Shown piece after piece: positions 5,059 to 35,547 of a stretch of DNA of 49,016 bases (position 1 is the stretch's first letter; each line of letters begins with the position of its first letter). Origin of the DNA: Verrucomicrobiota bacterium (GTDB lineage: Bacteria; Verrucomicrobiota; Verrucomicrobiia; Limisphaerales; SIBE01); assembly GCA_016871535.1 (NCBI GenBank), contig VHCZ01000015.1, forward strand, positions 1-49,016. Reading direction: 5' to 3'. The notes under the pieces were generated by a model. That model saw only the letters and a list, made by a program, of their open reading frames with translations, did no database searches and had not been told where the DNA came from. A program made the translations under genes and the position numbers.

Positions 5059-6021
5059 ATGAAACGTTGGGCATTGCCATCCTTGCTGGCCGCCGAGATC
5101 GCGTTCTTTACCTGGGTCAGCGCTCCAAAAATCCATTCGCTCAATGGATGGGCGGTCTATTTCCAGAATTACTTTGGTGATCTCGTGGCGCAATCCGCGC
5201 CGGTCATGTTGCTGGCGGCGGGGATGACGTTCGTGCTCATGACCGCTGGCATCGATCTTTCGGTGGGATCGATGGTCGCGCTGGTCGCTTGCGTGATGTC
5301 TTCCTTTCAGGCCGGGCCCGGATTCTGGTGGACCGCCGTGCCGGTGGGTTTAGCGCTGGCGCTGACACTTGGATTGACGAACGGCGTCCTGATTGCGGGG
5401 CTGAACATTCCCCCCATCATCGCGACGCTGGGCACGATGATCCTTTATCGGGGAATGTGTTTTGTGGTCATGGGCGATCTGGAAAAAGCGCCGTTTGTCT
5501 CGGTGCCGGGATATGAAAGCCTCGGACAATTCTCCGGCGCATTGGTTCTCATAGCGCTCGTGTTTCTCTTGGGGGGAAGCTGGTTCGAACGCTCGCGCTG
5601 GCGGCGCGAAATTCTCATGCTGGGCGGCAATCGAGTCGCGGCACGGTATGCGGGCATTCCGGTGACGCGCCGGCTCTGCGAGGTCTATGGCGCGATGGGC
5701 GTGCTGGCGTTCCTGGCGGCGCTGTGCTTCACGGCGCGGAACAGTTCGGTCAGCGCCAGTTCTCTCACGGGATTGGAATTGCACGTGATCGTCGCCGTCG
5801 TGCTCGGTGGAACCCGCGTGCAAGGCGGCGCGGGCTCGCTCTGGGGAAGCTTCCTGGGCGTCTTGCTAATCGCGGTGTTGGATGAAGGCTTGCGCGGCGC
5901 GGCCATCTGGGGCGAGCAAAACCTGCCGTTCAAAATCAGCCATCTGGAATATGTGCTCCTCGGTATTCTGTTGGTCGCCGGCGTCTGGCTAAATACACGG
6001 TTCGGCCGGCCGTCGCGGTAA
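5059..6021 (+). CDS. Sugar ABC transporter permease 2 (RbsC-like)
   Basis: A 320-residue BPD_transp_2 permease paralogous to the preceding gene. It carries the AAGMTFVLMTAGIDLSVGSM block near residues 52-72, NIPPIIATLGTMILYRGMCF, and VIVAVVLGGTRVQGGAGSLW near the C-terminus. About nine hydrophobic segments are visible. It sits 67 bp after permease 1 on the same strand and is presumably cotranscribed. Two non-identical permeases with one double ATPase suggest a heterodimeric transporter, as in several pentose and autoinducer-type systems. Ligand unknown. Confidence 0.92.
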   Translation: MKRWALPSLLAAEIAFFTWVSAPKIHSLNGWAVYFQNYFGDLVAQSAPVMLLAAGMTFVLMTAGIDLSVGSMVALVACVMSSFQAGPGFWWTAVPVGLALALTLGLTNGVLIAGLNIPPIIATLGTMILYRGMCFVVMGDLEKAPFVSVPGYESLGQFSGALVLIALVFLLGGSWFERSRWRREILMLGGNRVAARYAGIPVTRRLCEVYGAMGVLAFLAALCFTARNSSVSASSLTGLELHVIVAVVLGGTRVQGGAGSLWGSFLGVLLIAVLDEGLRGAAIWGEQNLPFKISHLEYVLLGILLVAGVWLNTRFGRPSR

Positions 6022-10190: not shown

Positions 10191-11996
10191 ATGTCCGCGG
10201 TGAAAGCTCAATTCGAACAGGAGCCAACAGAGAGAATGGAGGCTGAGGCTGAGCGAACTGGCCCATTCGGAAAACAATCCTGCGGTTGGTGTCGCTTTTT
10301 CAAGTTCTGGATTTCCGGTTTGTCTCGGATTTCGGATTTCGGATTTCGGATTCCGGCTGTTCCTCAGCCGAGCGCGTTCAGAGCCTGTCTGAAAAATGGG
10401 TGGAACGGGCTACCAGCCCGTTTTTGGGGGCAACCTGCCGCCAAAAGGCCCGGCGGGCTGGTAGCCCGCCGCAACAGGCCGGTGGCCTGTTCCACCCAGA
10501 AGACAGTTTTCAGACAGGCTCTCAGTCGCCCGGCGTTGAGCCATTGCTCCCTCGTGCTCTGGGCATTGCTTGGCATAAACGTGATCGGCGCACTTTCCCC
10601 AGCCGCCGCCGCCGCGCCCCGCCAACCCAACGTCCTCTTTATCGCCGTGGATGACATGAACAACGATTTGGGCTGCTACGGCCATCTGATGGTGAAGTCG
10701 CCGAACATCGACCGCTTGGCGCGGATGGGCGTCAAATTTGACCGCGCCTATTGCCAGTTTCCGCTGTGCAGTCCGAGCCGTTCTTCGCTCATGACCGGAT
10801 TGCGTCCGAGCCAGACGCGCGTCTTCAATTTGCAGTATCATTTCCGCACCGGCCTGCCCGACGTTGTGACCCTGTCGCAGTTGTTCAAGAACAACGGCTA
10901 CTTCGCCGCGCGCGTGGGGAAGATTTATCACTACGGCAATCCGGGCCAGATCGGAACCAGCGGCCTTGATGATCCGCCTTCGTGGAGCCAGGTCATCAAC
11001 CCGGCTGGCCGCGACAAGACCGTCATCGAAACCAACATCCTCAATTACACGCCCAAGCGCGGGCTCGGCAGCGCCATGTGCTACCTTCCCGACGCGGAAG
11101 GCCGCGATGAAGACCACACCGATGGCAAAGTCGCGCTCGAAACCATCAAGCTCCTTGAAGCGCACCGGGACAAACCGTTCTTCATCGCGACCGGCTTCTA
11201 CAAACCCCACACGCCGTATGTCGCGCCGAAGAAATATTTCGATCTCTATCCGCTTGATTCCATCAAGCTACCGGCCATCCCTGCCGATGAACAGGCCCGC
11301 GCGCCGAAACCCGCGCTCGCGTCCAACGCGCCCTGGCCATATTTCGGTGTGACCGAAGATCAGGCGCGCGAGTGCAAGCGCGCGTACTATGCGACGATCT
11401 CATTCGTGGACGCCCAGATCGGCAAAGTGCTCGAAGCGATGGACCGGCTGCAACTTTGGGACAACACCATCGTCGTGTTCTGGAGCGACCACGGCTATCA
11501 CCTTGGCGAACACGGCCTGTGGATGAAGCAAAGTTTGTTCGAGGAATCTGCGCGCGTGCCTTTGATCATCGTGGCGCCGGGAACAAAGGCCCGCGGCAAA
11601 ACTTCGCCGCGCGTGGTCGAGTTCGTCGATCTTTATCCGACGCTGGCAGACCTGGCGGAACTCACGCCCCCGGCGAACCTGGCGGGCGCAAGCTTGCGGC
11701 CCTTGCTCAACAATCCGATCCGGCGCTGGAATCGCCCGGCGTTCACGCAAGTCCAGCGCGGCCAGTTTCCCGGCTACTCCGTGCGGACGGAACGATGGCG
11801 TTACATCGAGTGGGATGATGGCGCGAAGGGAACTCAACTTTACGACCACAGAACCGATCCGCGCGAATTGAACAACCTCGCGGCGAACCCGAAATACGCG
11901 AAGACCGTTGCCGAGATGAAAGCGCTGATCAAAAGGAATTGGCCCGTGCGCGTGGAAGGCGGCCGCGCGCCGGACGCAAGAAAACCAGGCGCATGA
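10191..11996 (+). CDS. Exported sulfatase with a repeat-extended N-terminus
   Basis: The sulfatase domain starts at about RQPNVLFIAVDDMN and carries C-S-P-S-R (Cys193 from this start), LMTGLRPSQT, FWSDHGYHLGEHG and a C-terminal TQLYDHRTDPRELNNLA block. A signal-peptide-like segment (LVLWALLGINVIGALS followed by PAAAAA) precedes it but has no good start codon of its own. I chose ATG 10191 because GGAGAAG lies 4 bp upstream and the gene begins just after the first sulfatase. The leader then runs in frame through a GGATTTC tandem and a 141-bp MITE (10381-10521). TTG 10536 or GTG 10554 are alternatives. Function is likely as for the previous gene, with a different sulfated substrate. Confidence 0.8.
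   Translation: MSAVKAQFEQEPTERMEAEAERTGPFGKQSCGWCRFFKFWISGLSRISDFGFRIPAVPQPSAFRACLKNGWNGLPARFWGQPAAKRPGGLVARRNRPVACSTQKTVFRQALSRPALSHCSLVLWALLGINVIGALSPAAAAAPRQPNVLFIAVDDMNNDLGCYGHLMVKSPNIDRLARMGVKFDRAYCQFPLCSPSRSSLMTGLRPSQTRVFNLQYHFRTGLPDVVTLSQLFKNNGYFAARVGKIYHYGNPGQIGTSGLDDPPSWSQVINPAGRDKTVIETNILNYTPKRGLGSAMCYLPDAEGRDEDHTDGKVALETIKLLEAHRDKPFFIATGFYKPHTPYVAPKKYFDLYPLDSIKLPAIPADEQARAPKPALASNAPWPYFGVTEDQARECKRAYYATISFVDAQIGKVLEAMDRLQLWDNTIVVFWSDHGYHLGEHGLWMKQSLFEESARVPLIIVAPGTKARGKTSPRVVEFVDLYPTLADLAELTPPANLAGASLRPLLNNPIRRWNRPAFTQVQRGQFPGYSVRTERWRYIEWDDGAKGTQLYDHRTDPRELNNLAANPKYAKTVAEMKALIKRNWPVRVEGGRAPDARKPGA
10381..10521. mobile_element. MITE-like element B inside a sulfatase leader
   Basis: The terminal inverted repeats are GAGCCTGTCTGAAAA and TTTTCAGACAGGCTC. 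The element is directly flanked by TCA on both sides (10378-10380 and 10522-10524), a 3-bp target duplication of TNA type. GAG termini with TNA duplications are those of the IS1031 subgroup of the IS5 family. The interior is a set of smaller palindromes (GGTGGAACGGGCTACCAGCCC and relatives). Its 141 bp plus 3 bp duplication is a multiple of three, so the sulfatase frame is kept. Confidence 0.75.
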
Positions 11997-12400: not shown

Positions 12401-12515
12401 AGCGCGCTCAACTGGCTCATTCCGAACTTTGCCCCTCGTTCCCGGCGCAGATCGAACTCCGCTGAATTCCTCGTTCGTTCGCCATCAAAACTATTGACAG
12501 ACGCGCCGGGTCTAA

Positions 12516-12788
12516 GAGCGTGTCCGAAAATTGCGCGGGGTCCTGCGGCGAGGGATTTTGGCTGTGGCCAAGGCGGCGAGGTCCGAGCATCCCCAACGCG
12601 GGCTGTAAGGACCGAGCCAACGCAGGCCACGGACAAAAGACCCGCCGCCCGGAGGGTTTTCGCGCCAAAGGCCGCCTGGCTTCGTTGCTCCTCAGTCGAA
12701 GATCCAGGGAGGATATTCTCCTTCGTTGCGCCTCGCCATCCGGCCTTTGGCGCAAAAACAGGACCCCGCGGAATTTTCGGACACGCTC
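12516..12788. mobile_element. MITE-like element A, copy 1 (273 bp)
   Basis: Terminal inverted repeats of about 30 bp begin GAGCGTGTCCGAAAATT and end AATTTTCGGACACGCTC, with a single mismatch inside. TAA flanks both ends directly (12513-12515 and 12789-12791). It is nearly identical, with one base difference noticed, to 18347-18619. No transposase is encoded, so it would need one in trans. GAG ends plus 3-bp TNA duplication point to the IS1031 subgroup of IS5. Confidence 0.85.
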
Positions 12789-12808
12789 TAAGGCCTCATA
12801 CATGTAAT

Positions 12809-15728: not shown

Positions 15729-18344
15729 CTAAATCCGAGCCACGGCAAACCGCGTGGCGGAGGTTCCGGAGAGATTGACGACGATCTTATCGGATCGGGC
15801 TTCGTCCAGGATTTCGCCCAGGATTTCGCCATTGGCGCTCACCACCACAAATCTGTCGGCGTCGCCTGGTCTGCTTGGATCTCCCGCCACGAAGGCCACT
15901 TGCTCGCGGGTCAGCGGCACGGGCAATTTGGGATTTCGGACGGCTTTGGATGGCGTTGTCATCGACGCGTTCTGGGTCGCGCCCCTGCGAATCCAGTTCA
16001 GATGCTCTGCGGGCGCCGCCGGAGGCGTTTCGCCGCGTTGTGAGAAGACCGGGACCATGCGCGTGCCTGCAATCGCTTTGGCCTTCTTCACCAGGTTGAC
16101 AAATTCGGGGCGGTAGCCTTCTTCGTCCGCGCCTTTCCCTTCCTGGGCAAGTTCCAGAATGCTGTCGAAGTTCGCGGCGCCTTTAAAGCTGGAATCGCGA
16201 AGGATCAAGCCAAAGCCCGCCACCGCGGCGGCGAATTTGAAATCGGGCGAAGCCTGGCCAAAGCTCGCTTCGCTGTCCGCGGCGGTAAATTCCAGCAATT
16301 GGCTCTCGTTCGCCTCGGGCCTTTTGTAACGCAGTTTCAGCGTCAACAGTTCGCGCTCGGCATTTGCCACTCGGATTTGAAACCGTGGGCCGGATTGATA
16401 CTTCAGATTGTCGGTGGCCGCGCGGTTCTCGGAGGCGCCCGCGGGCACCACTTCATACAACGCGGTGACCGCGTGGCCGGCTCCGACCTCGCCGGCGTCC
16501 TTGGCGTCGTTGTTGAAGTCCTCCGTCCGCAACAACCGCTTCTCGTAACCGATCAAGCGATACTGGCTGACTTGCGCCGGGTTGAACTCGATCTGGACTT
16601 TTACATCCTTGGCGACCGCGACGAGCGTGCTGTTCATTTGGTCCAGCAACACCTTCTGCGCTTCTTCAATCGAATCGAGGTAATGGTAATTCCCGTTGCC
16701 TTTGTCCGCGAGCTTTTGCAGCAGCGCGTCTTTGTAATTGTCTGTGCCGACCCCCACGGCGCTCAGAAAAACTCCGCTCCGCGCTTTGTCCTGCAAGAGA
16801 CGGACCAGCGCCGTTTGATCTGTGATCCCGACGTTGAAATCGCCGTCCGTGCACAGGATGACACGGTTGACACCGTTCGGGATGAAATGGCGCGCCGCCA
16901 TGGCGTAGGCCTGTTGAATGCCCTCGCCGCCATTCGTCGAGCCGTTCGCTTCGAGCCGGTCGATCACGGCCAGGATTTGTTCTTTGTCCGCGCCCGAAGT
17001 GGAAGGCAGCGGGACCCCGGAATTGTTCGCATAGACGACGATGGCGACGCGATCGTGCTCCGACAATCTCTTGGTCAAGAGCCGCAGCGCTTGCTTGAGC
17101 AGCGGCAGGCGTTCGGGCGGCCGCATGGAACCGGACACGTCGATCAGGAAAACCAGATTGCTCGGTGGCCGTTTGCCGGGAGTAAGTGCCCGCGCTTTCA
17201 AGCCCACGGAGATCAACCGGTGCCCGGAATTCCAGGGGCAACCCGCCGTTTCCAGGCTCACCGCGAACGGCTCGTTGCCTTTAGGCGCGGGATAGGCATA
17301 GGTGAAGTAATTGATCATTTCCTCGATCCGCACCGCGTCCCCCGGCGGCAACTGGCCTTGGTTGAGGAATCGAAGGATGTTCGCGTACGATGCCGTATCG
17401 ACATCCAGCGAGAAGGTCGAGATCGGATTCTCCAGAGCCGTCTGAAACGGATTCTCCGGATAATACGGATACGTCGCGGTATTGCCCGGAGCCGAGCGGA
17501 TGGACTCGGCGCCATTGGCACCCGAATAACCATAACGGCGCACCGGCGTGGAATCGGGCCGCCCAGAGCGCGCGTACGGATCGGCGAGCGGTCCGGACGG
17601 AGCCAGGCCGTAACGACGCATCATTTCGGGGGACATTCCTCGGGAAGTCGCCGGACGGTTCTCAGCAACGAGAGTCTCGCGAGCGGACGACAGCGCGCCT
17701 TGCTCGGTCAATTGAGCCGGTTCAGCGCTTTGCGCACGTTCAACCTCCCGCACTAGCCCGTAACGCTTCAAGAGATTCTGATCCATTTTGAAATGGTAAG
17801 ATCGACTATCTTCAGCGGGTGTCGCCGGACCCTGGCTTGGCGCTGATGCGCGGCTGTCGCCGGACGAGGACGTGGGGGTGAGTTCGACTCTGGCCCCTGC
17901 ATCCGCAGGCTGGGGATCGCGGGCCGGTCTGGAGTCCAGCAGGGTTATGCGTTGCGCCTTGGCCTTGGCCTTTGACAGTGCGGGAAGTAAAAACGAACCC
18001 GCAACCAGCAAGACCAGGCACGCGGCAGCCGCCAGCCCACCCCACGAAACGAACCGGTTCCACGGCCCGCGGACCCCGACTTCCGGTTCCTCCTCTACGC
18101 CCGCGACCGTTGCTTCCGGGTCCACCGCCTCGCTAATGGTCTGCCGCTGCTCGTCGGAAAGACCCACGCAAGTTTCTTGTCCGAGTTCCTGCGCCAGGAG
18201 AGCCGCCGCTTGCTGGACTTCCTCAACGGCCTGGCGCCACTCGGCGGATTCCTCGAGCGCCAGTTCGACTTCCGCGCGCGCCGGCTCGTCGAGTTCGCCG
18301 AGCGCGTAGGCCGTCAAATGGGGATCATCGGGATCAATTTTCAT
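15729..18344 (-). CDS. Anti-sigma-like/VWA (YfbK-type) membrane protein
   Basis: An 871-residue protein starting MKIDPDDPHLTAYALGELDE. The N-terminus matches the short acidic anti-sigma-type segment used by PVC regulators. A single membrane segment (LAAAACLVLLVAGSFLLPAL) follows at about 125-150. The rest resembles E. coli YfbK: an N-terminal STFSLDVDTASYANILRFL block, a VWA domain with MIDAS motif FLIDVSGSM, and a C-terminal domain. The frame stays open upstream through a MITE, but this ATG is preferred because it restores the family's normal start. The ECF sigma gene lies upstream on the same strand, so the protein probably binds or senses for that sigma factor. A substrate for the VWA domain is unknown. 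Confidence 0.85.
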   Translation of the reverse strand: MKIDPDDPHLTAYALGELDEPARAEVELALEESAEWRQAVEEVQQAAALLAQELGQETCVGLSDEQRQTISEAVDPEATVAGVEEEPEVGVRGPWNRFVSWGGLAAAACLVLLVAGSFLLPALSKAKAKAQRITLLDSRPARDPQPADAGARVELTPTSSSGDSRASAPSQGPATPAEDSRSYHFKMDQNLLKRYGLVREVERAQSAEPAQLTEQGALSSARETLVAENRPATSRGMSPEMMRRYGLAPSGPLADPYARSGRPDSTPVRRYGYSGANGAESIRSAPGNTATYPYYPENPFQTALENPISTFSLDVDTASYANILRFLNQGQLPPGDAVRIEEMINYFTYAYPAPKGNEPFAVSLETAGCPWNSGHRLISVGLKARALTPGKRPPSNLVFLIDVSGSMRPPERLPLLKQALRLLTKRLSEHDRVAIVVYANNSGVPLPSTSGADKEQILAVIDRLEANGSTNGGEGIQQAYAMAARHFIPNGVNRVILCTDGDFNVGITDQTALVRLLQDKARSGVFLSAVGVGTDNYKDALLQKLADKGNGNYHYLDSIEEAQKVLLDQMNSTLVAVAKDVKVQIEFNPAQVSQYRLIGYEKRLLRTEDFNNDAKDAGEVGAGHAVTALYEVVPAGASENRAATDNLKYQSGPRFQIRVANAERELLTLKLRYKRPEANESQLLEFTAADSEASFGQASPDFKFAAAVAGFGLILRDSSFKGAANFDSILELAQEGKGADEEGYRPEFVNLVKKAKAIAGTRMVPVFSQRGETPPAAPAEHLNWIRRGATQNASMTTPSKAVRNPKLPVPLTREQVAFVAGDPSRPGDADRFVVVSANGEILGEILDEARSDKIVVNLSGTSATRFAVARI

Positions 18345-18346
18345 AA

Positions 18347-18619
18347 GAGCGTGTCCGAAAATTGCGCGGGGTCCTGCGGCGAGGGATTTTGGCTGTGGCC
18401 AAGGCGGCGAGGTCCGAGCATCCCCAACGCGGGCTGTAAGGACCGAGCCAACGCAGGCCACGGACAAAAGACCCGCCGCCCGGAGGGTTTTCGCGCCAAA
18501 GGCCGCCTGGCTTCGTTGCTCCTCAGTCGAAGATCCAGGGAGGATATTCTCCTTCGTTGCGCCTCGCCATCCGGCCTTTGGCGCGAAAACAGGACCCCGC
18601 GGAATTTTCGGACACGCTC
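18347..18619. mobile_element. MITE-like element A, copy 2, between sigma and anti-sigma genes
   Basis: A 273-bp element nearly identical to 12516-12788, with the same GAGCGTGTCCGAAAATT-type ends and TAA on both sides (18344-18346 and 18620-18622). It fills essentially the whole gap between the sigma stop codon and the VWA start codon. The target duplication uses the last base of the start codon complement, so the VWA gene has lost its native upstream region. Confidence 0.87.
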
Positions 18620-18626
18620 TAAGACC

Positions 18627-19160
18627 TCAGTGAACTTTGTTCAGGCCGAACTCCGTTCTGAGTTCGCGCCGCAAGGTTTTCAGAGCGCTGTGCAGGAGAA
18701 AGCCCACGTTCGTCACGGTCAGGTTTGTGACTCGGCTGATTTCTTTGTAACTCAGGCCGCACTGGAATTTCAGCCTGACGACCTCCTGCTGATTCGCCGG
18801 CAAACCATGGAGCGCCTGCAAGACGTGGTTCGCCGCGTCCGCCCGCTCCGCCGCGAGAGCAGGGGAAGGTTCGTCGCTTGCCTGGGACGCGGTTTCAAGT
18901 TCGGCCAGCGGTTTCATGCGATTCTCCTTTCGGCCAAGATCCACCGCGCGATGACGGCAGACCGTGAAGAGCCATTCGACGACGTAAGTCTGCACGTCAT
19001 CCGGATCTTCGGCGCAGAGGCGCAGAAAAGTATCTTGGACCACGTCACGCGCCTGGTCCGGATCACCGGTGAGCCAGGCATACCGCATGAGCGAGCTTTC
19101 GTGTTGATCGATAATCTGGCTGACCCACTCGCTTTTGCTCAGATGCCCGTTGTTGCTCAT
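18627..19160 (-). CDS. ECF-type RNA polymerase sigma factor
   Basis: A 177-residue sigma-70 family protein. Region 2 is visible as SLMRYAWLTGDPDQARDVVQDTFLRL, and region 4 as LPANQQEVVRLKFQCGLSYKEISRVTNLTVTNV. A helix-turn-helix (YKEISRVTNLTVTNVGFLLH) would read the -35 element. It was presumably cotranscribed with the anti-sigma/VWA gene before the MITE entered between them. The target promoters are unknown. Confidence 0.92.
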   Translation of the reverse strand: MSNNGHLSKSEWVSQIIDQHESSLMRYAWLTGDPDQARDVVQDTFLRLCAEDPDDVQTYVVEWLFTVCRHRAVDLGRKENRMKPLAELETASQASDEPSPALAAERADAANHVLQALHGLPANQQEVVRLKFQCGLSYKEISRVTNLTVTNVGFLLHSALKTLRRELRTEFGLNKVH

Positions 19161-28085: not shown

Positions 28086-29218
28086 ATGTGACACGGGGAA
28101 GTCAACAATGCAGGGGAGCACACGCGCCCTCGCGTGTTCCGACCGGGGCCTCGCCGGTCGGAATGAACGCGTCGATCGATGCCTTGATGATGACCTGTTC
28201 GAGCGAAACACGGTGGTCGGCGAGGGCGCCGACTGCAGCACGCGGGGCGCGTGCGCTCCCCCGAAACGCTTTCACCCTGCTGGAATTGCTCCTGGCTGTC
28301 GCCGTGTTTTCCGTCGTGATCCTGGCGATCAATGTTGTTTTCTTCAGCGGGCTGCGTTTGCGCGCGGCGACTTCGCGGATCGTGGAGGATTCCATTCCAG
28401 TGAACCGCGCCGTTTCTGTGATCAAGAACGACCTGCGCTCGGTGCTTCCGCCGGGAGGGACGCTGGCCAGGACGTTCACCGGCGGCATCCAGAGCAGCAT
28501 GTTCAACAACACGATGCTGAGCCAGGGCGGGGTCGATTCCAGTTCCGGTCTGCAATTCTGCACCACAACCGGTGTCACGGATGACTCGAACTTCGTTCTG
28601 TTCAATCAGACACAAATCGAACCCTGGCCGGAGATCCAGAAGGTGTCGTACTATCTGCGGAACCCTCTTTACTCGACCAACCAATGGGGCAAGGAACTCG
28701 TGCGCGCGGTCACGCGCAATCTTTTGCCCGTGATGGAAGATATGCCGGTCGAACAGCCGCTGCTCGACGGCGTGGAGCGGATCGAATTCCTGTTCTACGA
28801 CGGTCTGTCGTGGTTGTACACGTGGGACCTTGCCACAATGCAGACGTCCTTCCAAACGACCGAGGGCCAGAGTCAAACCAACGCATTGCCGCAAGCGGTC
28901 AAAATCCTGATCGAATTCGCCGCCGTGGGCCGCGATGAGCGTCTGCGCAAACCGCCGATTCAATTGGTCGTGCCCATCGTGGCGGAAGCGCGAACCAACC
29001 AACTCGCGTCCGCCAGCACGAACAGTTCGGCGCAAGTTACAAGCCGCGGGAATACAACGCCGGGCGGCAATCAGAACACGAGCGGCGGCAATCAGAACAC
29101 GAGCGGCGGCAATCAGAACACCGGGCGCGGCGGTGCAACCACGCCCCCGGCTTCCAACCCTTCTTCCGGCGGTCAGCGCGGAGGAAGCGGCGGCGGCGGA
29201 CGAGGAGGTGGGCGGTGA
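28082..29218 (+). CDS. gspJ: Minor pseudopilin GspJ with repeat-bearing leader and Asn/Gly-rich tail
   Basis: GTG 28082 overlaps the gspI stop (GTGA), a typical coupled start. The leader of about 63 residues crosses a 149-bp palindromic element (28113-28261) and ends RNA/FTLLELLLAVAVFSVVILAI, with Ala rather than Gly at -1. ATG 28163 or 28190 within the leader are alternatives. The mature domain matches GspJ (NRAVSVIKNDLRSVL, VERIEFLFYDG, LPQAVKILIEF). The C-terminus is a low-complexity tail with GGNQNTS repeats and a Gly-rich end, which is not usual for GspJ. It is part of the pseudopilus tip complex. Confidence 0.85.
   Translation: MNVTRGSQQCRGAHAPSRVPTGASPVGMNASIDALMMTCSSETRWSARAPTAARGARALPRNAFTLLELLLAVAVFSVVILAINVVFFSGLRLRAATSRIVEDSIPVNRAVSVIKNDLRSVLPPGGTLARTFTGGIQSSMFNNTMLSQGGVDSSSGLQFCTTTGVTDDSNFVLFNQTQIEPWPEIQKVSYYLRNPLYSTNQWGKELVRAVTRNLLPVMEDMPVEQPLLDGVERIEFLFYDGLSWLYTWDLATMQTSFQTTEGQSQTNALPQAVKILIEFAAVGRDERLRKPPIQLVVPIVAEARTNQLASASTNSSAQVTSRGNTTPGGNQNTSGGNQNTSGGNQNTGRGGATTPPASNPSSGGQRGGSGGGGRGGGR
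28113..28261 (+). repeat. Palindromic repeat family G, copy in gspJ leader
   Basis: Arms GGGGAGCACACGCGCCCTCG and GCGGGGCGCGTGCGCTCCCC enclose a second pair around CCGACCGGGGCCTCGCCGG and GGTCGGCGAGGGCGCCGAC and a centre of about 50 bp. It aligns along its whole length with the reverse complement of 29250-29399. Confidence 0.82.
29063..29122 (+). repeat. 21-bp tandem repeat in gspJ
   Basis: Three copies of GGCGGCAATCAGAACACGAG plus C, the last one diverging at its end, encode GGNQNTS repeats in the GspJ tail. Being a multiple of three, copy-number change keeps the frame. Confidence 0.85.
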
Positions 29219-30741
29219 AAACCGTTCGTTGTTTCCGTCCGCTTCAATTGGGGAGCGCACGCGCCCTCGCGTGCAGTGGTCGGCGCCCTCGCCGGCCTCT
29301 GAGTTTCCTCCGAAGAAGCCATCGCTACGAGACCGCCCGACGTGTGGGTTTCGACCGGCGAGGCGCCGGTCGGGACACGCGAGGGCGCGTGTGCTCCCCA
29401 ATGTCGCCCGAACACGCCTCAGTTCTCATCATCGTGCTCTGGATCACGTTCGGGTTGGTGAGCACGGCGCTCTACTTCGGCCATTCCATGCTGTTTGAAT
29501 TCCGCGCGTCGGACAATCACACCGCGGGCGTCGAAGCTGAGCAAGCGATCGAAGGCGCGGCCCGGTATGTGGCCTACGCTCTGACTAACCTCACCCAGCC
29601 GGGCCAGTTCCCGGAACTCCAATGGTACGACGTCGAGAACGTGCCCGTAGGCGAATCCCTTTACTGGCTGATCGGGCGCACCAACGTGTCCATGCAACTA
29701 GACCGGAACGAAACCCCGCGCTTCGGATTGATCGATGAAGCCTCCAAGTTGAACCTCAACACGGCGACGCTGGAGATGCTTCAGAACCTCCCGCGCATGA
29801 CACCGCAACTGGCGGCCGCGATCATCGATTGGCGCGACGAAGACACCAACCCTTCGCAGGACGGCGCGGAGACGGAAACTTACTCGCGCCTCAATCCGCC
29901 TTACCAGAGCAAGAACGCGCGATTCGAATCGATCGAGGAACTGCGGCTCCTGTTCGGCGCGGACCCGGAAATTCTTTACGGCGAGGACTACAACCGGAAC
30001 GGGATTCTCGACCCGAACGAGAACGACGGCGACTTGTCGTGGCCCGTGGATAACCGCGACGGCAAGCTGGATCCGGGAATTCTGGAATTTGTCACGATCT
30101 TCAGCCTGGAAGCAAACACGCGCACCAACGGCTCGCCGCGCGTGAATGTCAGCGGCGGCGGGACGAACCTCGCCGAATTGCTCCAGGAAAAGTTCGACCA
30201 GGCCCGCGTGAATGCAATTCAGCAGCGCGTCGCGAGCGCGACCAATCGGAGCGTGCTCGAATTTTTCCTGCGCAGCGGGATGACGGCAGAGGAGTTTGCC
30301 GAGATCGAAGGCGACCTGACCACGACCAACGCCGCGGTGATCGAAGGACTGATCAACGTGAACACAGCGCCCGTCGAGGTGCTGGCTTGTGTCCCGGGCA
30401 TCGGCTGGGATAAGGCGCAACAAGTCGTGGACTACCGGCAATCTCAGAGCGCCGTTTTGACCAGCCTGGCGTGGGTCGCCGAGATCCTGGACCAGGCGAG
30501 CGCAATTCAGGCCGGGCCTTACCTGACGTCCCGGAGCTACCAGTTCACCGCCGACATCGCGGCGGTGGGCCACCACGGACGCGGCTATCGGCGGACGGCG
30601 TTTGTGTTCGATACCAGCGAAGGCGCTCCGAAAATCATCTACCGCCGCGATCTGGGCCGGCTGGGTTGGGCGCTCGGCCCGCTCGTGCGGCAGGAACTGG
30701 CGCAAGCGAAAGAGACCGGAATTACCACGAGAATGCGATGA
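29215..30741 (+). CDS. gspK: GspK-like minor pseudopilin with repeat-bearing leader
   Basis: GTG 29215 overlaps the gspJ stop (GTGA). The frame then crosses a 150-bp palindromic element (29250-29399) before the helix HASVLIIVLWITFGLVSTALYF; ATG 29401 directly after the element is an alternative. The mature protein is GspK-like: LNLNTATLEMLQNLP and LINVNTAPVEVLACVPGI are the helix-hairpin-helix segments of the SAM-like domain. DYNRNGILDPNEND and DNRDGKLDPG look like EF-hand-type calcium loops. GspK caps the pseudopilus tip with I and J and limits its length. Confidence 0.87.
   Translation: MKTVRCFRPLQLGSARALACSGRRPRRPLSFLRRSHRYETARRVGFDRRGAGRDTRGRVCSPMSPEHASVLIIVLWITFGLVSTALYFGHSMLFEFRASDNHTAGVEAEQAIEGAARYVAYALTNLTQPGQFPELQWYDVENVPVGESLYWLIGRTNVSMQLDRNETPRFGLIDEASKLNLNTATLEMLQNLPRMTPQLAAAIIDWRDEDTNPSQDGAETETYSRLNPPYQSKNARFESIEELRLLFGADPEILYGEDYNRNGILDPNENDGDLSWPVDNRDGKLDPGILEFVTIFSLEANTRTNGSPRVNVSGGGTNLAELLQEKFDQARVNAIQQRVASATNRSVLEFFLRSGMTAEEFAEIEGDLTTTNAAVIEGLINVNTAPVEVLACVPGIGWDKAQQVVDYRQSQSAVLTSLAWVAEILDQASAIQAGPYLTSRSYQFTADIAAVGHHGRGYRRTAFVFDTSEGAPKIIYRRDLGRLGWALGPLVRQELAQAKETGITTRMR
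29250..29399 (-). repeat. Palindromic repeat family G, copy in gspK leader
   Basis: A 150-bp copy of the element at 28113-28261 in the opposite orientation, with arms GGGGAGCGCACGCGCCCTCG and CGAGGGCGCGTGTGCTCCCC. It occupies exactly 50 codons between the coupled GTG start and an ATG. Confidence 0.82.
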
Positions 30742-30751
30742 AACGAATCCG

Positions 30752-32191
30752 ATGATTTCCCTCACTAAAAACAAACCGCCCTCTGCGTTGATGGGGTTGA
30801 CGCTCGACAAGAGCCGGATCGAGGGCGTGGTGCTGCGCCGGCTCAATGGAGCCGTTCAAGTGCACCGATCCTTTCAAACTTCGCTTTCGCTGGACCCGCT
30901 GACGAACGATCCCGAATTGGTCGGGCGCGAAATCCGCAATCATTTGAATGAGGCCGGCGTGCGCGTGAAGCCGTGCGCGGTCTCCGTGCCGTTGAACTGG
31001 GCGCTGACTTTGCAGACCAAGATCCCGGCCATTCCCGAAGCGGACGTCGCGGACTTTCTCACCATCGAAGCGGAAAAGGGATTTCCGTACGCGCCCGAAG
31101 ATTTGTTCATCTCGATTTCACGATTTCGCGCTCCGAACGGGGATCAATACGCGACGATCGTGGCCATACCGCGGAATCACCTGACGCTTCTGGAGCGGGC
31201 GCTGCGGGCCGCGCAACTCAAGCCGCTGAGTTTTTCTTTGGGCATCTCCGCATTGCAGGACCTCGGCAAAGATCCCGCCTTCGGCTTGCTCGCGCTCGTG
31301 GTGGGCGAAAGTAGCGTTGAACTCCAGGTGTCCTCCGGTGGCGGCGTCGCGGCACTGCGCTCGCTGGAAGGCGCCATTGAAGCCAACGGTTTCGAACGCG
31401 ACATCGACGCCGACCTCATCGCGCGGGAAATCAAGATCACCCTGGGGCAATTGCCCAGGGAACTGCGCGAGACCGTGCGCAAAATCAAGGTGTTCGGCCG
31501 CCCCGAACTGGCGCAGCGCCTGGTGAAGGAACTTCAGGAGCGTCTGGACACCATGGGCCTGGAGATTGGCCTGGGCACCGCCCAGCCCGTGAATGGATTT
31601 CCGGTGCCGGTCACTTCTGACAAGGGTCTCTCCCCCGCGCTCGGCATGGCGGCCCGATACATCGTGGGCAAGCCGGGCGGATTCGAATTTCTGCCGCCCC
31701 GGGTGAGTCCGTGGACGCAGTTCACCGCGCGTTTTGCCTCGCGGAAGATGGTGTCGTGGGGCGCGCTGGCGGGCGCGACCGTGGTTTTGATCGCCGGAAC
31801 CTTCCTGTGGCAGCAGGTCCGGTTGTCCGGCCTGGAGTCGCGCTGGAAAGCGATTCAACCTCAAGTGACGGAGCTCGAAGATTTGCAGCAACGCATCCGA
31901 AAGTTCCGCCCGTGGTTCGACAACACCGCGCGCACGCTCGTCATCGTGCGCAAGCTGACGGAAGCGTTTCCGCTCGACGGCGCGGTTACCGCGAAAACGG
32001 TGGAGATCAAAGACCTTTCCACAGTCTCCTGTTCCGGCCAGGCCAAGGACCGCGAATCGTTGTTGAAAGTGCTCGAACGGTTGCGCGGCGCCAAAGAAGT
32101 GGCAGACCTGAAGCTGGGCCAGATCCGCGGGAATTCGCCGTTGCAGTTTTCCTTCGACTTGCGCTGGCGGGAAGGATCTCATGAAAATTAG
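30752..32191 (+). CDS. gspL: GspL-like (PilM/PilN-type) assembly protein
   Basis: A 479-residue protein starting MISLTKNKPPSALMGLTLDK. The N-terminal 330 residues have the actin-like PilM/GspL pattern (GLTLDKSRIEGVVL, AVSVPLNWALT, EAEKGFPYAPED, LLALVVGESSVELQV). A single membrane helix (MVSWGALAGATVVLIAGTFLWQQ) follows near 375-400. After it come a coiled-coil segment and a ferredoxin-like periplasmic domain, as in GspL/PilN. It should link the GspE ATPase to GspM and the outer complex. It begins 10 bp after gspK and overlaps gspM by 11 bp. Confidence 0.85.
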   Translation: MISLTKNKPPSALMGLTLDKSRIEGVVLRRLNGAVQVHRSFQTSLSLDPLTNDPELVGREIRNHLNEAGVRVKPCAVSVPLNWALTLQTKIPAIPEADVADFLTIEAEKGFPYAPEDLFISISRFRAPNGDQYATIVAIPRNHLTLLERALRAAQLKPLSFSLGISALQDLGKDPAFGLLALVVGESSVELQVSSGGGVAALRSLEGAIEANGFERDIDADLIAREIKITLGQLPRELRETVRKIKVFGRPELAQRLVKELQERLDTMGLEIGLGTAQPVNGFPVPVTSDKGLSPALGMAARYIVGKPGGFEFLPPRVSPWTQFTARFASRKMVSWGALAGATVVLIAGTFLWQQVRLSGLESRWKAIQPQVTELEDLQQRIRKFRPWFDNTARTLVIVRKLTEAFPLDGAVTAKTVEIKDLSTVSCSGQAKDRESLLKVLERLRGAKEVADLKLGQIRGNSPLQFSFDLRWREGSHEN

Positions 32192-32726
32192 GAACCGCGA
32201 AAAACTTCTGACGATCGGCGCCATTGCCGCCGTGGCCATTCTGGCCGGGGACCGGCTCGTTTACCCCCCGCTGGTGCGGACCTGGAATGACAAGAACACT
32301 CGGATCACGGAGTTGAATCGCTCCATCAACAAAGGCGAAGGTTTGCTCCGAAGCGAACGCTCCATCCGCGAGCGCTGGGACGATATGAAGAAACGCTCGC
32401 TGCCGGCCGATGTATCCAAAGCGGAAAACGACGTGCTTCAGGCGGTCGTCCGCTGGCAGCAGGAAAGCCAGATCGGGTTGACCTCCATCAAGCCGCAGTG
32501 GAAACGGACCGACGAAGATTTTGCGACGCTGGAATGCCGGGCCGATGCGGGCGGCGCCGCCGGCGGCAGCATCGAAGCAGTGTCGCGTTTTCTTTACGAA
32601 CTCGAAAAAGATCCCCTGGCGCTGAAGATCGAGGGCGTGGAAATCACGTCGCGCGATACCGCCGGCCAGCAAATCTCCGTCGCGGTCCGGTTCAGCGGAT
32701 TGCAGCTTGCCCGGGAGGAACGATGA
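32181..32726 (+). CDS. GspM/PilO-like protein
   Basis: A 181-residue bitopic protein: short cytoplasmic start MKIRNREKL, membrane helix LLTIGAIAAVAILAGDRLVY, coiled coil (NKNTRITELNRSINKGEGLL in outline) and a C-terminal ferredoxin-like domain. This is the layout of GspM and PilO. It overlaps the L gene by 11 bp and the next gene by ATGA. It is expected to pair with GspL in the inner-membrane platform. Confidence 0.78.
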   Translation: MKIRNREKLLTIGAIAAVAILAGDRLVYPPLVRTWNDKNTRITELNRSINKGEGLLRSERSIRERWDDMKKRSLPADVSKAENDVLQAVVRWQQESQIGLTSIKPQWKRTDEDFATLECRADAGGAAGGSIEAVSRFLYELEKDPLALKIEGVEITSRDTAGQQISVAVRFSGLQLAREER

Positions 32727-33838
32727 AAGCGGCGCTTTTCAAAATGAACCTGGCAGAGATCGCAACCCGAGTGGCGTGTTCTCTCACGCGCGGACCGCAG
32801 CCTTTAGGCTGCTTCCGCGCGCTCTCCGCAGTCGAGCGTCGAAGCGGCCTAAAGGCCGCGGTCCGGAAGAATGGTTCATGCGAAGCTTCCTGTTCCTTAC
32901 GAACCTGCCCAAGGCCCACGAACCGAAAACCGCGCGGACCTCAACCTTTAGGCTGCTTCCGCGCGCAATTTGGAGTTCGGCGTGGAAGCGGCCTGAAGGC
33001 CGCGGCCCGAGGAGTTGGTTCATGGGAAGACACCCGCGCGGCCATTCTGTGCGCTCTCTTGTGCGTGCTGCTTTCTTGCATGATCCCCACGGCGTTCGGC
33101 GCCAATGAATCCACGAATGCGCCTGCGAGCACGGACGCGCCACGCTCCGAACCCGCATTGGTGGCGGGCGAATCCACCAACGCGCCTTCACTTCAGGGCT
33201 TCGCGGAATTCAAGATCGTTGCGGAGCGGAATATCTTCAACGCCAACCGGCGTCCGGGCACAGCCAATCGGCCACCTAGAACCGAACGCCCGCCCAGAAC
33301 CGAAGCGTTCTCTCTGGTCGGCACCTTCCTCTACGAAGACGGCAACTTTGCCTTTTTCGCCGGGACGGAATCGGGCTACAATAAAGTGTTGAAAGAAGGC
33401 GAGACGATTGGCGACTGCGAGATCACGAGCATCACGCAAGATTCGGTCAAACTGCTGAGCGGCGAGATGGAGATTGATCTGCCGCTGGGGCTTCAGATGA
33501 AGCGGCCAGAAGGAGGCAGATGGGAACTGGTTGTTGGCGCGGTCGCCTCGACCTCAGCAGCTCCTTCAACTTCGACATCGGCATCGGGAGGACGCGATCG
33601 GGGCTTCGGTTCCGATAACCGGCGGGATCGTGGTGGGTTCGGCTCGGACCTGCGGCGTCCGGGTGGAGACACTCGACGGGATCGCAGTTTCTGGGGGCGC
33701 GAACGCAGCGCGCCTTCCGCACCAGTCACGGAGGCGGCGCCGGAATCGAAACCGGCCGAGGCACCAGGCAATCCAGGTCCTGCGGACGACATTCTACAAA
33801 AACTGATGCAAAAACGGGAACAGGAGTTAAACAAATGA
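32723..33838 (+). CDS. GspC/PilP-like protein with in-frame palindromic repeats before its signal peptide
   Basis: ATG 32723 overlaps the M stop (ATGA). After MKAALFKMNLAEIATR the frame crosses two 75-bp palindromic modules and a linker (32791-33009). It then reaches the hydrophobic export segment AAILCALLCVLLSCMIPTAF, which has no suitable start codon of its own. The mature part contains FKIVAERNIFNANRRP and a small beta domain (FSLVGTFLYEDGNFAFFAGT), matching the HR domain of GspC or PilP. It ends in a Gly/Arg/Pro-rich tail. It should contact the secretin, encoded immediately downstream with another ATGA overlap. The in-frame repeats are best supported here. Confidence 0.75.
   Translation: MKAALFKMNLAEIATRVACSLTRGPQPLGCFRALSAVERRSGLKAAVRKNGSCEASCSLRTCPRPTNRKPRGPQPLGCFRAQFGVRRGSGLKAAARGVGSWEDTRAAILCALLCVLLSCMIPTAFGANESTNAPASTDAPRSEPALVAGESTNAPSLQGFAEFKIVAERNIFNANRRPGTANRPPRTERPPRTEAFSLVGTFLYEDGNFAFFAGTESGYNKVLKEGETIGDCEITSITQDSVKLLSGEMEIDLPLGLQMKRPEGGRWELVVGAVASTSAAPSTSTSASGGRDRGFGSDNRRDRGGFGSDLRRPGGDTRRDRSFWGRERSAPSAPVTEAAPESKPAEAPGNPGPADDILQKLMQKREQELNK
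32791..33009. repeat. Cassette-like palindromic array 2 inside a coding leader
   Basis: Two module-i copies (32791-32865 and 32935-33009, 75 bp each) with arms CAGCCTTTAGGCTGCTTCC and GAAGCGGCCTAAAGGCCGCG are joined by a linker starting GGTTCATGCGAAGCTTCC and ending CACGAACC. GGTTCATGGGAAG follows at 33017. The same module is at 12074-12148 and 45557-45629. Confidence 0.8.
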
Positions 33839-35547
33839 AAACCTCGAAGATTCGTGCAGCGGTCCTGACCCTTGCGGCAGGAGCATTCATCGCTTTCGCT
33901 CAAGAAACGGCGCCGCCTGCCCAAACCCCGGCGCCGCCCGCGGCAGCCCAGGAGCAGCCGGCGGCGGCAGACAAGCCTGCCGGAGACAAGGCAGCAGCGG
34001 CTCCGGCAAACGCCGCGGCTCCAGCCGAGAAACCCGCAACCACGCCAGCCAACGGCAACGCGGCAAACGGGAATGGCATTCGGCTCAATTTCCGCGGCGC
34101 GCCGTTGGAAGAGGTTTTGAATTACCTGAGCAAAGCCGCCGGCTTCATCATCGTTCCGGAGACCGACGTGAAGGGCAAAGTGGATGTCTGGAGCGGCCAG
34201 CCCTTGACCAAGGACGAGGCCTACGACCTGCTCAACACGATCCTCAAGAAAAATGGCATGGCCGCGCTGCGCAATGGCCGGACCTTGACCATCGTCAGCC
34301 TGGAAGAAGCGCGCAAACGCGACATCCCGGTTGTCCAAGGCAGAGAGCCCGAAGAGATTCCCAAGACGGATCAGATGGTCACGCAGGTGATTCCGATTCG
34401 TTACGCGGACGCCACGCAGATGACGCGAGACCTGCAGCCGCTGCTCCGGGATTACGCGACTTTGACCGCCAACCAGAGCGGCAACGCGCTGGTGCTCACC
34501 GCGACGCAAACCGATGTCAAACGAATGGTTGAAATCGTCAAAGCGCTCGACACTTCAATCTCCAGCATTTCCGGGATTCGCGTTTTCCAACTCCAGTACG
34601 CGGACGCGAAAGACCTGGCGAATGTGATCAAGGAATTGTTCGACACGTCGGCCACGCAGAGAAATCAAGGCCGGGGCGGCGCGGTGGGGGATCGGATCCA
34701 GCAACTCTTCAACACAGTCGGGGGGTTCGGGGGCGCTTTTGGCGGCGGGCCAGGCGACCGCGGCGGCGGCCCGGGCGGATTCGGCGGGCGCGCTGGAGGC
34801 GCGGGCGGCGCAAGCGAGGCGCGGCAGGCTGCTTCCAGAGTCGTGGCCGTGGCCGATGAGCGCACCAACTCCCTCGTGGTCAGTGCGCCTGACGAGTACC
34901 TGCCGACGATCGAACAAATGATCAAGCAGATCGACATCGTCATGGACGACCTCACCGTGCTGCGCGTGTTCCGTCTGAAGAACGCCGACCCGACTTATAT
35001 GGCCCAGCAATTGGGGGCGCTGTTTCCGGATGAGACCCGCAGCCAGAATAATCAATTCGGCCGGGGCGGATTTCAGTTCCTGGGAGGCGGACCCTTTGGA
35101 GGAGGCCGGGGCGGATTTGGCGGCCGGGGCGGCGCAGCCAGCACGGCCAATCAGAGCGAACGCATGAAGAAGCTGGGCCGTGTTCTCTCGGTCCCGGACG
35201 CGCGCACCAGCTCCCTCATCGTCAGCGCGTCGGCGGAACTCATGCCGCAAATCGCCCAGATGATCGAAGAACTCGACGCCGATCCGGCTCGGAAAGAGAA
35301 GGTGTTCGTTTTCTCGGTTGAGAACGCGAACATCCAGGACGTGGAAGAGCTCCTGAGCGACATGTTTCTCGGAAACAACAGTCAGTTGTCCAGCCGGAGG
35401 CGGACCCAGCAGCAGAATAACAACGCCTTGAACAATCGGCAGTTTAACACCACGCGGAATCTTGGAACGGGCGGCAACTTCGGCGGCGGACGCGGGGGGA
35501 CCGGAGGCGGTTTGCCCACCTTCGGCAGCGGCAACTTCGGGCCTTAG
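33835..35547 (+). CDS. Secretin N-domain protein (split GspD, part 1)
   Basis: A 570-residue exported protein: signal peptide 1-22, Ala/Pro-rich linker to about 78, then an N0/STN-like domain (IRLNFRGAPLEEVLNYLSKA). Three NolW-type N domains follow at about 183-240, 247-368 and 374-481 (each ending in a V-V-A-T-VK-M/I-LD pattern). A fourth begins at FVFSVENANIQDVEELLSDM (491-510) and stops in a Gly-rich tail. Long Gly-rich loops interrupt N domains 2 and 3. There is no beta-barrel secretin domain. The barrel is encoded separately at 35615. It overlaps the C-like gene by ATGA. It should form the periplasmic gate ring of the type II channel. Confidence 0.87.
   Translation: MKTSKIRAAVLTLAAGAFIAFAQETAPPAQTPAPPAAAQEQPAAADKPAGDKAAAAPANAAAPAEKPATTPANGNAANGNGIRLNFRGAPLEEVLNYLSKAAGFIIVPETDVKGKVDVWSGQPLTKDEAYDLLNTILKKNGMAALRNGRTLTIVSLEEARKRDIPVVQGREPEEIPKTDQMVTQVIPIRYADATQMTRDLQPLLRDYATLTANQSGNALVLTATQTDVKRMVEIVKALDTSISSISGIRVFQLQYADAKDLANVIKELFDTSATQRNQGRGGAVGDRIQQLFNTVGGFGGAFGGGPGDRGGGPGGFGGRAGGAGGASEARQAASRVVAVADERTNSLVVSAPDEYLPTIEQMIKQIDIVMDDLTVLRVFRLKNADPTYMAQQLGALFPDETRSQNNQFGRGGFQFLGGGPFGGGRGGFGGRGGAASTANQSERMKKLGRVLSVPDARTSSLIVSASAELMPQIAQMIEELDADPARKEKVFVFSVENANIQDVEELLSDMFLGNNSQLSSRRRTQQQNNNALNNRQFNTTRNLGTGGNFGGGRGGTGGGLPTFGSGNFGP

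What the first reader, a model, noticed from the sequence alone, without database searches (positions are those of the whole stretch)
32723..33110. C-like gene: the best single case of translated repeats
The export helix (LCALLCVLLSCMIPTAF) has no in-frame ATG or well-placed GTG/TTG before it. The only good start is ATG 32723, coupled to the M gene. Two 75-bp modules (25 codons each) and a linker lie between them. If the gene is functional, the repeats must be translated.
Basis: partly seen in the sequence, partly recalled or inferred. Interest (0 to 1): 0.7.

Follow-up and report, generated by a model that had tools for sequence, protein, structure and literature searches.

The report
Mobile palindromes translated inside gspC
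In a draft genome of an unnamed Verrucomicrobia bacterium, short mobile DNA palindromes sit in frame inside ordinary genes, including the start of this secretion gene, so the cell probably makes them as protein; such insertions were already reported in Rickettsia and in another member of this phylum.

Summary
Two 75-bp palindromes (32791-32865, 32935-33009) with a 69-nt linker lie in frame between ATG 32723, coupled to gspM, and the export helix of a GspC-like gene. No in-frame ATG, GTG or TTG occurs from 32774 to 33058. The gene is under purifying selection (dN/dS 0.17 against a sister species). The unique n-region before the repeats matches one of six relatives compared (1 of 5000 shuffles scores as high). 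Reading through the repeats is the best explanation, though not proven.

It is not the best single case. The same palindrome family sits in frame in tilS; another sits inside the catalytic domain of murC. In 2.05 Mb of this genome I found 533 repeat regions of mobile type. Where a gene's frame enters a repeat and coding resumes after it, 39 of 46 keep frame and stay open. Family A has 82 sites there; complete copies are mostly 112 bp, with ends CCCATGAACC...GGTTCATGGG shared with other families.

This resembles Rickettsia palindromic elements and the intragenic REPs reported for the verrucomicrobium Opitutus terrae. It is a new family of a known kind.

The main doubt: the repeat's own ATG (33022) is out of frame, and CTG 32993 could be a start.

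The parts
32181..32726 (+). gspM-like gene; its stop TGA (32724-32726) overlaps the gspC start (ATGA)
   Evidence: NCBIfam GspM E 5.4e-06, 26 bits, below the curated cut-off of 60
32713..32718 (+). GGGAGG, Shine-Dalgarno-like, before ATG 32723; the 22-nt stretch gcttgcccgggaggaacgatga is identical in sister G001
32723..32786 (+). start codon and unique n-region coding sequence of gspC (MKAALFKMNLAEIATRVACSL...), not repeated elsewhere in the 2.05-Mb sample, similar to G004
32791..32865 (+). family A palindrome, copy 1 (75 bp, 25 codons)
32866..32934 (+). linker, 69 nt, holding the right end of copy 1 (GGTTCATGC, 32873-32881) and the left end of unit 2
32915..33026 (+). complete 112-bp unit with ends CCCACGAACC and GGTTCATGGG, around copy 2
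32935..33009 (+). family A palindrome, copy 2 (75 bp, 25 codons)
33022..33024 (+). ATG in the right end of the element, out of frame with gspC
33041..33103 (+). export helix, AILCALLCVLLSCMIPTAFGA
   Evidence: called an export helix from the sequence, no signal-peptide program was run
33299..33532 (+). GspC homology-region / PilP-like beta domain (core residues 87-164)
32723..33838 (+). gspC-like gene as read through the repeats (371 aa)
33835..35547 (+). gspD N-terminal part (secretin), next gene

Best explanation
Two copies of a mobile, MITE-like palindrome have inserted in frame into the n-region of a type II secretion gspC gene. Translation starts at ATG 32723, coupled to gspM, and runs through both copies. 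The precursor carries about 100 residues (106 from 32723 to 33040, 21 K+R and 5 D+E) before the export helix, where an unstructured cytoplasmic n-region does little harm. Shown: the repeats, the open frame, absence of standard starts after the repeats, selection on the gene, and frame preservation of such repeats in the sampled third of the genome. Inferred: actual initiation at 32723, fate of the extension, and mobility.
For: No in-frame ATG/GTG/TTG from 32774 to 33058. dN/dS of the gspC core against sister G001 is 0.17 over 261 codons. Gene order M-C-D and the start-codon stretch are kept in G001. The n-region before the repeats matches G004, which has no family A match, so the insertion probably split an older coding sequence and both halves still share one frame. 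In 2.05 Mb, 39 of 46 repeats entered by a gene frame with coding after them keep frame and stay open (p 8e-13 against one third). Family A itself is read through in tilS, where none of the 10 relatives with both halves on one contig covers the inserted residues 262-299. A different family lies inside the murC catalytic domain, absent in same-genus G001 and G002.
Against: The codon model calls 32721-33024 non-coding. Random insertion would give an open, matching frame in about 15% of cases, so this single gene is weak on its own. CTG 32993 and ATT 33044 are in frame. Of six relatives compared, only G004 shows the n-region match; G001, G003, G005, G006 and G026 do not. In G001 the sequence after ATG is itself repeat-derived and a GTG follows its repeat, so G001 does not need to translate its element. 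G002, same genus, gave no gspC match at all. The PMC3733652 authors (section 15 read) judge many N-terminal REPs not coding.
Confidence: 0.74

Rival explanations
1. Translation starts at a non-standard codon (CTG 32993 inside copy 2, ATT 33044) or at TTG 33059 inside the helix, so that the repeats are mostly 5' untranslated sequence.
For: CTG 32993 would give LKAAARGVGSWEDTRAAILCALL, a short basic n-region. Most repeats in this genome lie outside coding sequence: 67 of 533 are wholly in coding state.
Against: A start at 33044 or 33059 would leave no basic residue before the helix. The upstream ATG has a good Shine-Dalgarno-like site, is coupled to gspM, and leads into an n-region that matches G004 in the same frame.
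Confidence: 0.12
2. The right end of the element supplied the start (GGTTC-ATG-GGAAGA, Met-Gly-Arg), as it may do for a pseudopilin and a lipoprotein elsewhere, and a 1- or 2-nt indel, real or in the draft assembly, has put ATG 33022 out of frame.
For: At L062 7920 (MGRQPGFTLIELL...) and L077 2886 (MGRTLLVLTGFLVCAVAIGC...) this ATG is in frame with an export-type helix. ATG 33022 lies 19 nt before the helix.
Against: It needs an indel, and then the open frame from 32723 is a coincidence of about 15%. In-phase cases near gene starts are 6 of 10, p 0.08, not significant.
Confidence: 0.09
3. The gene is dying: the insertion disabled its start and it is not made.
For: The extension is long and unlike orthologues outside the genus.
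Against: dN/dS 0.17, open frame, and neighbouring genes L, M and D also constrained, 0.07-0.11; G000 and G001 both keep an open frame through different elements. The sister comparison cannot exclude very recent inactivation.
Confidence: 0.05

Closest known systems
Rickettsia palindromic elements (RPE; Ogata 2000 and 2002, seen here only as cited in PMC10969869 and PMC3733652)
   Same: Dispersed palindromes of about 150 bp (PMC10969869 passage), several families, in frame inside unrelated genes.
   Different: Other phylum; no sequence was compared. Here only 67 of 533 regions are wholly within coding state, against nearly half of RPEs inserted in ORFs in that passage.
Intragenic GTAG/CGTC REPs, the GTAG ones most numerous in Opitutus terrae, a verrucomicrobium (PMC3733652: section 15 read, passages elsewhere)
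   Same: Same phylum, REP dimers inside genes including uvrA, multiple families per genome. UvrA here also carries an insert.
   Different: Family A has no terminal GTAG or CGTC and is longer (75-bp palindrome, 112-bp unit) than the 20-40 bp REPs of that paper. Other families of this genome were not tested for the tag.
REPINs with RAYT (Y1) transposases (recalled; only abstract beginnings seen)
   Same: By eye each arm holds a small hairpin (GCGGCCTTTAGGCCGC in the consensus) and the arms are inverted. Y1 transposase genes are present, 13 matches.
   Different: In 6 loci holding 7 of the 13 matches, family A appears only as a truncated half beside one gene.
GspC / PilP of type II secretion and type IV pili
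   Same: Gene order, NCBIfam GspC_delta match E 4.1e-07, homology-region fold: 3oss_C TM 0.78 by target, PulC 0.69, PilP 2y4y about 0.6.
   Different: Bits (30) are far below the NCBIfam cut-off (150); no Pfam match; no Foldseek E-value at or below 0.001.

Membership tests
Protein-coding palindromic repeats (RPE-like) | Palindromic, dispersed in many copies | tested here: met
   82 sites in 2.05 Mb, 51 of exactly 75 bp; fold and both-strand matches
Protein-coding palindromic repeats (RPE-like) | In-frame insertion inside unrelated protein genes | tested here: met
   tilS, murC, UbiD, epimerase, MFS and others, 9 of 19 scanned proteins with domains on both sides or across; 39 of 46 in frame
Protein-coding palindromic repeats (RPE-like) | Sequence relationship to Rickettsia RPE families | not tested
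   no RPE sequence was fetched or compared
Protein-coding palindromic repeats (RPE-like) | The repeat is present in the made protein | not testable with these tools
   needs proteomics
GTAG/CGTC REP | 20-40 bp hairpin with terminal GTAG or CGTC | tested here: not met
   family A only: 112-bp consensus ends CCCATGAACC/GGTTCATGGG; the only tag-like word is an internal, weakly conserved GACG
REPIN mobilised by RAYT | Element flanks a RAYT gene in the same genome | tested here: inconclusive
   7 of 13 Y1 matches examined; only a 21-nt half-match beside the gene on C9
MITE | Terminal inverted repeats | tested here: met
   57 end pairs 50-260 bp apart against 2 in one shuffled sample; 14 of 18 end-to-end family A units are 112 bp, out of 35 family A sites in that sample
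MITE | Target-site duplication | tested here: inconclusive
   no adjacent direct repeat longer than 1 nt in the 48 units under 131 bp listed, but the true outer ends are not known: the bases just outside are themselves partly conserved
GspC | Place between gspM and gspD, export helix, homology-region domain | tested here: met
   the helix was judged by eye
GspC | Curated family cut-off | tested here: not met
   30 bits against 150

The most novel reading that the evidence does not exclude
One mobilising machinery in this genus moves unrelated palindromic cores through common ends (CCCATGAACC...GGTTCATGGG). Its right end, sometimes with Shine-Dalgarno-like purines, then ATG-GGA-AG, is a portable start and leader (Met-Gly-Arg or Met-Gly-Ser) that can be captured by exported proteins, while in-frame copies become long translated n-regions that are disposed of at the membrane. 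Export leaders would then be a regular landing place for translated mobile DNA.
Probability: 0.15. Interest if true: 0.6.

Novelty: new member of a known kind. Interest (0 to 1): 0.38.

Why it matters
It gives a dense, multi-family example of probably translated mobile palindromes in a large-genome bacterium outside Rickettsia. Inserts in tilS and murC, both normally essential (established knowledge, not tested here), make translation directly testable by proteomics. It also warns that codon-based gene callers may cut such genes short: mine called the gspC repeats non-coding.

Tried and rejected
Rejected: that G001 shares the first nine codons of gspC with the window. Other repeat copies in G001 match from base 4 of that query, so the stretch is repeat-derived, and the shuffle test gave 737 of 5000.

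Rejected as proof: element-donated starts as a general rule; 4 of 7 in phase in the first sample, 6 of 10 in the larger one, p 0.08. A Shine-Dalgarno-like 4-mer stands before the right end in 7 of 18 units.

Led nowhere: Rfam, no match in the window; Pfam on gspC, gspM and gspL, no match; a RAYT linked to family A; target-site duplications.

Limits: the gene caller is a home-made order-4 Markov model, not benchmarked. The 39 read-through cases were not each checked by homology, and two genes (L173 11728-16613, L174 3652-16887) are counted twice among them. Of the 20 candidates, 19 were scanned with Pfam (L055:15853-19701 was not), and 9 of the 19 have domains on both sides of or across the insert (tilS, murC, epimerase, MFS, UbiD, urease gamma/beta, FAD-oxidase/CCG, DUF2339, TPR/glycosyltransferase). 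The first-sample frame test gave 18 of 22 after dropping five regions judged to be true gene families; the larger one dropped 58 of 591 regions whose partners are mostly coding. In it 4 change frame, 3 keep frame but have a stop inside, and 25 enter with no codirectional coding after. The sample is not random: the window holds the finding, and stretches on C24 and C39 were placed to include known hits. In one search the tilS row of L106 was in the wrong frame and the murC row of G010 holds a different stretch of its own. tilS itself was not found in same-genus G001 and G002, only repeat matches. Repeat searches score a capped number of candidates per genome, so counts there are lower bounds. 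I checked no reads; the repeats make misassembly of copy number possible.

Full report
What was seen. Between ATG 32723 and the export helix at 33041 lie two 75-bp palindromes, 32791-32865 and 32935-33009, with a 69-nt linker. The frame is open to 33838 and there is no in-frame ATG, GTG or TTG from 32774 to 33058.

What gene it is. The core (33041-33835) has a match in 53 of 78 genomes searched, the own genome included. NCBIfam gives GspC (E 4.1e-07, 30 bits, cut-off 150). An AlphaFold2 model (mean pLDDT 68.8, pTM 0.41) has a confident beta domain at core residues 87-164 whose top structural matches are PilP and GspC/PulC homology-region domains (3oss_C TM 0.78 by target length; no E-value at or below 0.001). 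Neighbours are GspM-like before it and the secretin GspD after it. One relative is named: the groundwater MAG Verrucomicrobia bacterium isolate NC_groundwater_675 (JACPRI010000389.1).

Is the gene alive? Against G001 the core has dN 0.157, dS 0.92, ratio 0.17 over 261 codons; the flanking genes give 0.07 to 0.11.

Was the repeat inserted into coding sequence? The stretch 32723-32786 is unique in 2.05 Mb of the genome (best other match 15 nt, E 0.27). Its peptide matches the start of the orthologue in G004, where family A has no match: MNLAEIATRVA against MNQIRIASRVA, score 34, reached by 1 of 5000 shuffles. The five other relatives compared showed no such match. In G004 this stretch is followed after 13 residues by the helix. 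So the n-region was probably split, and both halves are still in one frame. In sister G001 a different palindrome occupies the same place, also open in frame, but there a GTG follows the repeat and could be the start.

How common is it? Family A has 82 sites in 2.05 Mb, 51 of them exactly 75 bp. In 78 genomes searched, own included, 13 have a match; the strong ones are in the three members of the genus and the rest are mostly short (capped per genome). Of 35 sites in the first sample 18 lie in an end-to-end unit, 14 of these exactly 112 bp, with ends CCCATGAACC and GGTTCATGGG. The same ends frame other palindrome families: 57 end pairs against 2 in one shuffled sample.

Are such repeats translated in this genome? 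In 2.05 Mb there are 533 repeat regions whose partners are mostly non-coding, 4.3% of the sequence; 67 lie wholly in coding state although about 82% of the sample is coding by the same model, so they avoid genes. Where a gene's frame enters a repeat and coding resumes within 60 nt, 39 of 46 stay in frame and open, 4 change frame and 3 have a stop; p 8e-13 against one third. The first sample alone gave 18 of 22. The model is home-made and not all cases are verified by homology. The clearest cases are tilS and murC. tilS has a family A insert between its ATP-binding and C-terminal domains; none of the 10 relatives with both halves on one contig covers query residues 262-299. murC has an insert inside the Mur ligase middle domain, absent in G001 and G002 of the same genus. 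These are stronger than gspC because protein on both sides is conserved.

How it most likely works (inference). Mobile palindromes with common ends land at many places; mainly in-frame, open landings at tolerant places survive inside genes. The n-region before an export helix is tolerant. A second secretion operon on C36 looks similar. A GspK-like gene there has family A in its leader, though an ATG at the repeat's end could be the start. A GspJ-like gene has another family, with no in-frame start between the repeat and FTLLEV, although a GTG inside the repeat could serve. For gspC the precursor would carry about 100 extra, mostly basic residues. Initiation at 32723 and the fate of the extension are inferred. 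The mobilising enzyme is unknown: 13 Y1 transposase matches exist, but in the 6 loci read, holding 7 of them, family A occurs only as a truncated half next to one.

What is known. PMC10969869 (passages read) describes RPEs fused in frame to Rickettsia genes. PMC3733652 (section 15 read in full; [quoted passage not shown] So the kind is known, in this phylum too. Family A is not a GTAG/CGTC REP. My searches for earlier descriptions were made, seen as listings apart from the two papers named; none of the listings showed this family, which is weak evidence of absence.

Verdict. Observation confirmed; translation through the repeats likely (0.74); a new family of a known kind; not the best single case in the genome.

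Noticed in passing
L041:1219-2754 (tilS), insert 1995-2114: Family A palindrome in frame inside tilS, absent from relatives: a better case than gspC.
   Followed up: yes
L064:5153-7732 (murC-murB fusion), insert 5689-5814: A different palindrome family inside the Mur ligase middle domain; empty in same-genus G001 and G002.
   Followed up: yes
window 10191-11993: Sulfatase gene with a 47-codon dispersed repeat read in frame before the sulfatase domain; a later start was not excluded.
   Followed up: partly
window 28113-28261 and 29243-29406: Two copies of another repeat family (inverted to each other) at the 5' ends of gspJ- and gspK-like genes of the same operon.
   Followed up: partly
L062 7920 and L077 2886: The right end of a family A element gives an in-frame ATG-GGA-AGA (Met-Gly-Arg) just before the helix of a pseudopilin and of a lipoprotein.
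   Followed up: partly
L073 12885-17742 (minus strand): Second type II secretion-like operon in which PilM-, GspK- and GspJ-like genes all carry in-frame repeats.
   Followed up: partly
L075:17406-20000: UvrA (cut by the end of the stretch) with a repeat insert at residues 700-721; uvrA is also the decorated gene in Opitutus terrae (PMC3733652).
   Followed up: no
L003 1-684 (G000:C99): Tandem array of family A units at a contig end, spaced 141-143 nt.
   Followed up: no
L123 1575-1595 (G000:C9): Truncated half of a family A element just before the 5' end of a Y1 transposase gene.
   Followed up: partly
window 12513-12798 and 18344-18629: 286-bp direct repeat, 99% identical, 5.8 kb apart.
   Followed up: no
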